NCBI RefSeq assembly: GCF_022170785.1
Contig: NZ_CP081870.1
Location: 4,154,001-4,218,000 of the forward strand
Length of the DNA: 64,000 bases
Source: Rossellomorea marisflavi
GTDB taxonomy: Bacteria; Bacillota; Bacilli; Bacillales; Bacillaceae_B
Direction: 5' to 3'
Shown here: positions 3,688 through 6,452 of the stretch, in pieces
How positions within the stretch are numbered: the stretch's first letter is position 1
Layout: the number at the start of each line of letters is the position of its first letter
Notes under the pieces: generated by a model
Told to the model about the DNA's origin: nothing
Databases searched by the model: none
The model's input: the letters and a program-made list of their open reading frames with translations, nothing else
Position numbers and translations under genes: made by a program

Positions 3688-3739
3688 GTTCCTTTGCGCT
3701 GCAGGGATTTGCTTTCCGCGGGGGGCATGTCGAGCCTCC
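3688..3739. repeat. Left half of a REP-like repeat split by the IS110 element
   Basis: From GTTCCTTTGCGCTGCAGG to GAGCCTCC this matches the first half of the intact repeat at 5803-5923 with few changes. The match stops at 3739, which gives the left junction of the insertion. Confidence 0.85.
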
Positions 3740-4148
3740 CTCATGAAAATTCAGTAGTTCTTAGTATTCCTAGGTTTTTCTCAGGTTTTCGTAGGCGTTC
3801 AAAAGAGGCGACATGGCACATTTGAATAAATTCATCCATATTTAAATATATATGGAAACGCACTAAGCGTCTGAAGAAACCTGGCGTCTTTTTTCCATTA
3901 ATAGGTACTAATTTATGATCGCACTATTGGATCTCCACATACGACATGGCGGTGGACCCTCCCATTTCTCTCAGCGTCTATGCGCGTAAATTCCTTCGTT
4001 CGACCTGACCATGTGTGGTTGCCGGAAATGCTCCTCGGGTGGGTCTATGCCCTAATGCTTGGAATAGTGACCGGCTTATCCGTGCTTCTTTTGATTACCT
4101 AAGAAACCATCAAAAAACTAAGGGATATTGACTGCTGGACATCATACG
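3740..4148 (-). other. Long noncoding end of the IS110 element; candidate bridge-RNA region
   Basis: This 409-bp segment downstream of the transposase has no credible gene. Its length resembles the IS1111-type layout, in which the guide RNA lies after the transposase gene. At 4027-4037 it contains AATGCTCCTCG, identical to 5558-5568 at the right junction (4 bp of element end plus core and target). That is suggestive of a guide loop, but I did not fold the RNA and promoter and limits are unknown. Confidence 0.35.
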
Positions 4149-5432
4149 TTAAGCTGCCTGCACATCTCTCATATGAGGGATATCGCGAAGCATGCGTTCC
4201 TCACTAAACGCACACTTTCGTGTGCCTATGACAAATAAGACCTTAATCAGTTTACGTCCTAGTGCGACAAAAGACTGTTTCCCTTTAAGAGGATTCGTTC
4301 GTCTGTGTTTATAATACTGATGAAGAGCTTTAAAGGCGTCATTATGAAAAGTTAAAGGGCGGGCGACTTGATACAGAATGGAACGCAACCTTCGTCGCCC
4401 ACGCTTAGTAATGGTTGTTTTCCCTCGATGTGTGCCGGATTGGTTCATCATCAGATTCAGTCCTGCTAATTTAATAATCTGTCGTGGATCTTTATAATTT
4501 GATAAGTCACCAATCTCGGCGAAGAACCCAACAATGGTCATCGCTCCCACGCCATTGATCGCCATCATAAGATCTGCGCCAGGAACCGTAAGAACCAGTT
4601 CTTCAAGTTCTTCTTTCAGATTGTCCAGACGTTCGTTTAAGGCCTCATACTGATCAACGAGATAGCGAAGCTCTTCACGAGCCATGCGGAGACCTACGGT
4701 CATCCCAACACTGGAGTCAGCTACTTTCTTTAAGTGGCGCATACGCGCCACCCCTACATTTTTGGTCCCTAATGCCTTTACGTCGTATAGAAGTTCCTCT
4801 TCTGTCTTCTGTCGAATATCTGTTGGAAGATAGCCTAACTTCAGAAGCGCCATCGCCATCTTTCCATTCCACTTCTTAAACACCGTCAAGAATTCAGGGA
4901 AATACCGATCCAGAACGTTATGGATTTGTGCTTTGATGGAAGAGAGATCTTCTTGAATGATATCAAAGAGTTTCACGCCTTCACGTAACTCGGCATAGAT
5001 GCCTTCCGGCAAGGTAGGCTCATGATACCGCCCTGCTCGCATGACTTGAGCGATGACCTTCGCATCCTTTGTATCATTTTTGGTAGGCGAGTCATCATCC
5101 AGTTCTTTTGATTTCTTGACCTTCATCGGGTTTACCACCACAGGGCGCTCGCCCTGGGATTTCAAGAAGTAAGCTAGATTCATCCAATAATGTCCCGTAG
5201 GCTCCATCCCCAACATTAAGTTCGGACGGGATGTGTCCGCACTTAATTGTCGAGCCCACTCTAGTAACAATTGGAATCCTTCTAACGAATTCGGAAAAAC
5301 CAGACGCTTCGATAAGTCGATTCCTCGATCATCAATGGCCCTGGCGACGTGCTTGTGTTTGGCAATATCAATGCCGATGATTAAAGTCTGTTCATTAATT
5401 TGATTAAGTCGTTCATTTTGTGTAAAATCCAT
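4149..5432 (-). CDS. IS110-family transposase (DEDD recombinase)
   Basis: The 427-aa protein has the two-domain layout of IS110 recombinases. The N-terminal DEDD RuvC-like domain shows GIDIAKHKH, MEPTGHYW and NDTKDAKVIAQ. The C-terminal Transposase_20 domain shows INGVGAMTIVGF and QSGTHRGKTTITKRG, which carries the catalytic Ser. The frame is intact and full length, so the element could still be active. The family moves by bridge-RNA-guided recombination between circular donor and target DNA. There are no accessory genes. Confidence 0.95.
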   Translation of the reverse strand: MDFTQNERLNQINEQTLIIGIDIAKHKHVARAIDDRGIDLSKRLVFPNSLEGFQLLLEWARQLSADTSRPNLMLGMEPTGHYWMNLAYFLKSQGERPVVVNPMKVKKSKELDDDSPTKNDTKDAKVIAQVMRAGRYHEPTLPEGIYAELREGVKLFDIIQEDLSSIKAQIHNVLDRYFPEFLTVFKKWNGKMAMALLKLGYLPTDIRQKTEEELLYDVKALGTKNVGVARMRHLKKVADSSVGMTVGLRMAREELRYLVDQYEALNERLDNLKEELEELVLTVPGADLMMAINGVGAMTIVGFFAEIGDLSNYKDPRQIIKLAGLNLMMNQSGTHRGKTTITKRGRRRLRSILYQVARPLTFHNDAFKALHQYYKHRRTNPLKGKQSFVALGRKLIKVLFVIGTRKCAFSEERMLRDIPHMRDVQAA

Positions 5433-5561
5433 AGTTGAAGTCTCCCTTCGGTACTTAATTCGAGGTCATGCGCATGACACTCTCTATCGTACCAAGGGAG
5501 CTTTTTTTATGCACATCGCTAAAATCTCACTTTATCCTCATATTCTTTTATAACAGGAATG

Positions 5562-5634
5562 CTCCTCGTGCCTGCGGGGTCTCGATCATCCCCCTTTTCC
5601 GCAGGAGTCAAATCCCTTCCGCTCCAATCCACTC
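5562..5634. repeat. Right half of the REP-like repeat split by the IS110 element
   Basis: From CTCCTCGTGCCTGCGGGG to CTCCAATCCACTC this is nearly identical to the second half of the intact repeat at 5803-5923. It marks the right boundary of the insertion. Confidence 0.85.
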
Positions 5635-5802: not shown

Positions 5803-5923
5803 GTTCCTTTGCGCTGCAGGGATTTGCTTTCCGCGGGGAGCATGTAGAGCCTCCTCGTGCCTGCGGGGTCTCGAACATCCCCCTTTTCCGCAGGAGTCAA
5901 ATCCCTTCCGCTCCAATCCACTC
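5803..5923. repeat. Intact REP-like palindromic repeat
   Basis: A 121-bp unit with the blocks CTTTCCGCGGGG, GAGCCTCCTCG, CTGCGGGGTCTCG and CCGCAGGAGTC, which form imperfect stems. This layout recurs in many Bacillaceae genomes. It is the reference copy showing how the IS110 insertion split its neighbour. The 5635-5802 spacer holds nothing I recognise. Confidence 0.8.
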
Positions 5924-6004
5924 AATGCTATTGGACTTGGTGTGGTAATCGTTCATAAATTAGGTTAGAACGTCATTTCAGAAAAGACCGAAGGATGTGA
6001 TGTC

Positions 6005-6452
6005 ATGTTCCGAATTAGCACACCCCTCTCCACCGCACAGAGTGAAGTGCAGCGAAGGCCTCCCGACTCCTATGGGAATAGCGGGCAGGGTGAGACCCTG
6101 CAGGCAACGCCGAAGCGGCTCACCGCACGCCCCATGGAAAGCGGGTGGCCGCAGCGAAACGGAACGATCTCTTCTCCACCATAACCACATTACAAGATCA
6201 GGATGGCGATTCCCTGTTCCAAATCAGCACAGAATCCACTGCATTGCACAGAGTGAAGTGCAGCGGAGGCCTCCCGACTTCTATGGGAATAGCGGGCAAG
6301 GGGAGACCCTGCAGGCGCAGCCGAAGCGGCTCACCGGACACCCCATGGAAAGCGGGTGGCCGCAGCGAAACGGAACGATCTTGTCTTCACCACATACTCA
6401 TCACAAAAACAAGAGGGCGATATCTGTTTCAAATCAGCACACCCCTCTCCCA
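6005..6452. repeat. Tandem ~210-bp REP-like repeats (2.1 copies)
   Basis: Two copies with a period of about 210 bp (6005-6215 and 6216-6425) and the first ~27 bp of a third (6426-6452). Each contains GTGAAGTGCAGCG, CTATGGGAATAGCGGGCA, CCGAAGCGGCTCACCG and CATGGAAAGCGGGTGGCCG. Read on the minus strand this is the same block order as the 5803-5923 repeat but more diverged. Open frames across it are by-products of the repeat; I see no ribosome binding site or family match. Confidence 0.8.

What the first reader, a model, noticed from the sequence alone, without database searches (positions are those of the whole stretch)
4027..4037. Right junction of the IS110 element repeated within its noncoding end
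AATGCTCCTCG occurs at 4027-4037 and at the right junction 5558-5568, where it joins element end, CT core and target. A guide RNA that pairs with such sites would be expected in a noncoding end. The 410-bp noncoding stretch after the transposase gene fits a bridge RNA in the IS1111-type position.
Basis: partly seen in the sequence, partly recalled or inferred. Interest (0 to 1): 0.65.

Follow-up and report, generated by a model that had tools for sequence, protein, structure and literature searches.

The report
Bridge-RNA guide in an IS110 element
The repeated 11-base word is the part of a jumping gene's own guide RNA that recognises the DNA site the element jumps into, and about 150 related elements show guide and site changing together; this extends a mechanism discovered in 2024 to a widespread group of elements in Bacillus-type bacteria.

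Summary
Confirmed and explained. AATGCTCCTCG occurs exactly twice in the window: at the right junction of a 1.83-kb IS110-family element (5558-5568) and inside its noncoding end (4027-4037). The element (transposase 4149-5432, minus strand; four identical copies in this genome) carries a two-loop bridge RNA at 3920-4088, minus strand. Read as RNA, the repeat is CGAGG-AG-CAUU: the right-target guide, the core, and a short stretch facing the donor end. [quoted passage not shown] In 128 distinct insertions of relatives, the five bases next to the core in this arm match the flanking DNA at 91% of positions against 51% after shuffling partners. The opposite arm tracks the other flank. Twenty-six further elements, found with the RNA model alone, repeat the result. 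The two-loop structure has compensatory changes in 23 of 25 pairs. Two refinements: the element lacks IS1111 subterminal inverted repeats and has an IS110-length transposase, so 'IS1111-type' describes the RNA's position and not membership; and the last base of the 11-mer match is fortuitous. It is a well-supported new member of a known kind.

The parts
3736..5563 (-). IS110-family insertion sequence (about 1826 bp), core CT at 3736-3737 and 5562-5563 on the + strand
   Evidence: Four identical copies with different flanks and left-end motif shared by about 150 relatives
4149..5432 (-). IS110-family DEDD transposase/recombinase, 427 aa
   Evidence: Pfam PF01548 and PF02371; NCBIfam NF033542 'IS110 family RNA-guided transposase'; D22, E77, D120, D123 and S332 line up with the IS621 catalytic residues
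3920..4088 (-). Bridge RNA core (target-binding loop then donor-binding loop)
   Evidence: Structure conserved in 49 relatives, 97.1% of cells paired, 23 of 25 pairs with compensatory changes; covariance-model hit 157 bits
4027..4037 (-).
4057..4063 (-). 5' arm of the target-binding loop, left-target guide UCCAAGC (for the GTCAAGC/GTCGAGC side of the target)
   Evidence: Tracks the other flank in relatives
4021..4076 (-). Target-binding loop closed by AGCCGG (4071-4076) with CCGGC (4021-4025), apical hairpin GGGCAUAGACCC at 4041-4052
   Evidence: Helices 1 and 2; positions
3935..4018 (-). Donor-binding loop: stems 4009-4018/3935-3949, left-donor guide AGGAAU (3990-3995), apical hairpin 3974-3985, right-donor guide AUGGG + core AG + G (3958-3965)
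   Evidence: Helices 3-6; AGGAAU equals donor AGGAATG; GGGAG equals element end GGGAG
5558..5568 (+). Right junction: element end AATG, core CT, target CCTCG
3732..3745 (+). Left junction: target GAGC, core CT, element end CCCTCATG
5806..5925 (+). Intact copy of the REP-like target repeat; target core AGCCTCCTCGTGCC at 5848-5861
   Evidence: Sequence; 29 perfect target cores in the genome

Best explanation
The noncoding end downstream of the transposase gene encodes a bridge RNA (about 170 nt, minus strand, 3920-4088) with a target-binding loop followed by a donor-binding loop. On the + strand the target is GTC(A/G)AGC-CT-CCTCGTGCC. The 5' arm of the target loop (CCAAGC) pairs with the bottom strand left of the core. 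The 3' arm (CGAGG-AG) pairs with the top strand right of the core, and the next bases (CAUU) can pair with the donor end AATG once the top strands are exchanged. The repeated 11-mer is therefore the complement of the recombinant element-core-target junction: target guide + core + handshake guide. The donor loop (AGGAAU; AUGGGAG) holds the circularised element ends. Shown by sequence comparison: the RNA structure, the target pairing and its covariation, ends and targets. Inferred: transcription, protein binding, the catalytic sequence of events, and the handshake role of CAUU.
For: Repeat exact and unexpected. Four identical copies, all in the same REP-like site. Guide-flank identity at positions 1-5 from the core 98/98/98/86/77% against 49/87/53/36/30% with partners shuffled, 0 of 2000 shuffles as high, and no signal at positions 6-10. 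23 distinct five-base guides, class-level match 4.42/5 against 2.03 (sd 0.23). Left guide 4.83/7 against 3.93 (sd 0.08). A scan along the RNA peaks at these two arms (z 15.7 and 8.9; the next best, apart from positions next to the peak, reach about 5.6). Independent set found by RNA model only: 26 elements, 3.62/5 against 2.09 (sd 0.22), 0 of 20,000. Structure: covariation score 0.584 against 0.258 shuffled, collapsing when slid by one column. Left-end donor motif AGCATTCCTG nearly invariant while targets vary. Recombinase homologous to IS621 with catalytic residues aligned.
Against: No RNA or transposition data. The donor is nearly invariant, so donor-loop pairing and the handshake cannot be tested by covariation; base 2 of the CAUU stretch matches in 50% and base 4 in 13% of loci, and in several distant elements (L275-L282) base 1 does not match the donor. 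The window's left guide has one mismatch (A for G) to three of its four target copies and a non-CU core position. No convincing own promoter or terminator for the RNA. Relatedness inflates shuffled-partner z-scores, though the held-out set and 23 guide classes speak against that as the cause.
Confidence: 0.93

Rival explanations
1. The donor-facing bases after the core (CAUU) are not a handshake guide but a linker contacted by the recombinase; only CGAGG-AG (7 nt) is guide and the rest of the 11-mer match is coincidence or structural constraint.
For: Donor invariance means no covariation can be shown; base 2 is A or T about equally and base 4 is random; mismatches at base 1 in distant elements.
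Against: Bases 1 and 3 match the donor in 98% and 94% of loci; IS621 structures show the same position re-pairing with the incoming donor strand after exchange (PMC11208158); elements L181/L182 have A in both guide and donor where others have C.
Confidence: 0.35
2. Chance repeat: the 11-mer match is accidental.
Against: Expected 0.03 in the window; systematic match at the same place in relatives, including held-out ones.
Confidence: 0.01
3. The internal copy is a secondary insertion or recombination site (a decoy or remnant junction), not a guide.
For: It has the DNA sequence of a junction.
Against: It lacks the rest of a target or donor on either side, lies in a conserved RNA loop arm, and changes in step with targets in relatives.
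Confidence: 0.02

Closest known systems
IS621 bridge RNA / recombinase (IS110 group; PMC11208160, PMC11208158)
   Same: DEDD recombinase with the same catalytic residues; RNA with two internal loops, target loop first; target arms pair with opposite strands around a CT core; RNA positions just beyond the core face the other DNA (handshake guide).
   Different: Here the RNA is downstream of the gene and, in transcription orientation, the guide order and core are flipped (AG on the coding strand); transposase is 427 aa against about 326; the donor-facing stretch has two well-conserved matching bases spread over three positions.
IS1111-group seekRNA elements such as ISEc11, ISPa11, ISKpn4, IS4321 (PMC11187229)
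   Same: RNA in the downstream noncoding region; arm complementary to the coding-sense strand precedes the other; some members target REP-type repeats.
   Different: No 11-13 bp subterminal inverted repeats; transposase longer than the 330-350 aa range and only distantly similar to IS4321.
IS110-type elements with a downstream noncoding region (a group mentioned in PMC11187229)
   Same: Same combination of IS110 features and downstream noncoding region; probably this group.
   Different: Their members and RNAs are not named in the readable text, so identity could not be checked.

Membership tests
IS110 family (broad) | DEDD/RuvC N-terminal domain plus Transposase_20 C-terminal domain | tested here: met
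   PF01548 E 1.6e-33, PF02371 E 6.5e-22; NF033542 229 bits against cut-off 140
IS110 family (broad) | Catalytic D-E-D-D and serine | tested here: met
   D22, E77, D120, D123, S332 aligned with IS621
Bridge-RNA element | Conserved RNA with two internal loops in a noncoding end | tested here: met
Bridge-RNA element | Loop arms complementary to and covarying with both target halves | tested here: met
Bridge-RNA element | Second loop complementary to the donor ends | tested here: inconclusive
   AGGAAU and GGGAG match the donor, but the donor hardly varies; one co-change seen (L173-L176: GAGGGAAT with donor CGGGAATG)
Bridge-RNA element | RNA expressed, bound by transposase, required for recombination | not testable with these tools
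   No RNA or biochemical data
IS1111 group | Subterminal inverted repeats of 7-17 bp | tested here: not met
   Best terminal inverted match scores no better than shuffled ends; IS4321 control gives a perfect 11-bp repeat
IS1111 group | Guide RNA region downstream of the transposase gene | tested here: met
   RNA at 3920-4088, gene 4149-5432 minus
IS1111 group | Transposase of 330-350 aa | tested here: not met
   427 aa; range from PMC11187229
IS1111 group | Transposase clade | not tested
   No tree with named references was built; IS4321 gives only 31% over 107 aa

The most novel reading that the evidence does not exclude
In this flipped, downstream-RNA lineage the target-loop arm is built as a continuous complement of the recombinant junction (five target bases, the core, about three donor bases), so the RNA positively selects the exchanged product; the handshake described in IS621 would then be an ancestral, widespread feature shared by both orientations of bridge RNA.
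Probability: 0.45. Interest if true: 0.55.

Novelty: new member of a known kind. Interest (0 to 1): 0.42.

Why it matters
It gives a clean natural data set of about 150 elements with at least 23 different five-base target guides and one conserved scaffold. That makes target reprogramming, guide length (five bases plus core on this side) and the handshake step directly testable in a lineage outside the studied IS621 and IS1111 examples. No Rfam family matches the RNA region, so the covariance model also fills an annotation gap. The underlying mechanism is already published.

Tried and rejected
Rfam 15 at permissive threshold: no meaningful match to the noncoding end, only a sub-threshold snoRNA match inside the transposase gene. 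Single-sequence folding of the whole 401-nt region gave a weak z-score (-2.2) and a misleading global fold; the comparative structure replaced it. Published bridge-RNA covariance models are not held here; one was built from relatives instead. Consensus promoter/terminator scan found nothing above chance. Chance repeat, decoy site and IS1111 membership were considered and rejected or limited as above. A consensus fold of the left-end leader alignment failed because it is too gappy. Three literature searches found no other paper on handshake guides, or on bridge RNAs of this group.

Full report
Observation. AATGCTCCTCG occurs at 4027-4037 and 5558-5568 and nowhere else in the window; dinucleotide-preserving shuffles give 0.03 on average. 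The region is an insertion sequence with a 427-aa IS110-family transposase on the minus strand (4149-5432). The genome holds four copies identical over 1841 bases. Their flanks differ but share a REP-like repeat, so the ends can be read off: left junction GAGC-CT-CCCTCATG (core 3736-3737), right junction AATG-CT-CCTCG (core 5562-5563). An uninterrupted repeat stands next door at 5806-5925, and the target core AGCCTCCTCGTGCC occurs 29 times unbroken in the genome.

The RNA. The noncoding end was aligned with those of relatives from the same genus, other Bacillales and GTDB genomes. A 169-nt core (3920-4088, minus strand) is conserved with two hairpin domains, each with a large internal loop. 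In 49 diverse sequences 97.1% of paired cells are standard pairs. 23 of 25 pairs have compensatory double changes. The covariation score is 0.584 against 0.258 for shuffled partners and about 0.1 for every slid version. A covariance model finds exactly four copies in the genome and hits in 54 of 249 genomes sampled across the phylum.

What the repeat is. The repeat lies in the 3' arm of the first loop. As RNA it reads CGAGG-AG-CAUU. In nearly every relative this arm has the form five variable bases + AG + C(A/T)T, and the five variable bases are those flanking the element's left end (transposase orientation). Examples: GGTGC/GGTGC, CGAAGC/CGAAGC, GGAGC/GGAGC, TAAAA/TAAAA, AAGAA/AAGAA, GCAGG/GCAGG, AGGTT/AGGTT. 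Over 128 distinct insertions the identity at positions 1-5 is 98, 98, 98, 86 and 77%, against 49, 87, 53, 36 and 30% with partners shuffled. Positions 6-10 show nothing. A scan of all positions of the RNA, both senses, has its maximum here (z 15.7); the other flank peaks in the 5' arm of the same loop (z 8.9).

Independent check. Forty loci from other orders of the phylum, found by the RNA model without use of their flanks, were read. In the 26 with a recognisable left end the guide matches the flank at 3.62 of 5 positions against 2.09 by shuffling, 0 of 20,000 shuffles as high, with guides not seen before such as ATTGG, AGGAA, TTTGT and ACGAA matching exactly. The match weakens in the most distant elements (L275-L282).

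Mechanism. With the CT-core strand as top strand the arrangement is that of IS621: the 5' arm pairs with the bottom strand left of the core, the 3' arm with the top strand right of it, both taking in the core (PMC11208160). In IS621 the two RNA bases following the core complement pair with the incoming donor strand after exchange, the handshake guide (PMC11208158). In the window the bases after the core complement are CAUU, which pair with donor AATG. That is why the repeat spans element end, core and target: it is the complement of the exchanged junction. In the family the first and third of these bases match the donor in 98% and 94% of loci, the second in 50% and the fourth in 13%. So the fourth matching base in the window is luck, and the handshake reading, though natural, is an inference that covariation cannot test because the donor (AGCATTCCTG) hardly varies. 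The second loop carries AGGAAU and AUGGGAG, matching the two donor ends; one co-change (GAGGGAAT with donor CGGGAATG in L173-L176) supports it.

Classification. RNA downstream of the gene and guide order relative to transcription are as in IS1111-group elements (PMC11187229). But the long subterminal inverted repeats that define IS1111 are absent, while IS4321 fetched as control shows an 11-bp perfect repeat, and the transposase is 427 aa, in the IS110 range. The seekRNA paper mentions IS110-type elements with a downstream noncoding region, and this is probably one of them. It works like the known bridge/seekRNA systems and belongs to the IS110 family; it is not filed under IS1111.

Limits. 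Everything is comparative. Transcription, processing, protein binding and recombination were not observed. The window's left guide has one mismatch to three of the four occupied sites. Shared ancestry inflates the shuffle z-scores, which is why the class-level and held-out tests are given. The host genus is inferred to be Rossellomorea because a same-genus genome has a contig of the length of the Rossellomorea plasmid CP128836.1.

Noticed in passing
window 5442-5500, minus strand: Long hairpin in the left-end leader pairs CTCCCTTGGTAC with GTACCGAAGGGAG and so would bury the ribosome-binding site of the transposase gene; similar hairpins fold in the leaders of the relatives examined. Possible control of translation.
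   Followed up: partly
L079, L185, L186 (same-genus genome G012): A second IS110 lineage (transposase 40% identical) inserts at the other arm of what appears to be the same REP-like repeat (CTTTTCCGCAGG-AG-TCAAGCGCCTTCCG), with its guide matching that site (GCAGG), so different IS lineages in this genus exploit one repeat family at two positions.
   Followed up: partly
own genome G000:C1:426028-426516, 535964-536889, 548082-548489, 651148-651566: The REP-like target repeat occurs in short arrays with about 195-240 bp spacing.
   Followed up: no
L005 1501-1618 (G000:C1:3609207-3609324): Decayed fragment of the left-end leader and gene start of a relative of this element, without the rest.
   Followed up: partly
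window 6025-6421: Two copies of a 186-bp intergenic repeat, 87% identical, 211 bp apart, different from the REP-like target.
   Followed up: no
L171, L181, L182: Distant members whose handshake-position base is A instead of C; in L181/L182 the donor also changes to A (AG-ATTCC), in L171 it does not.
   Followed up: no
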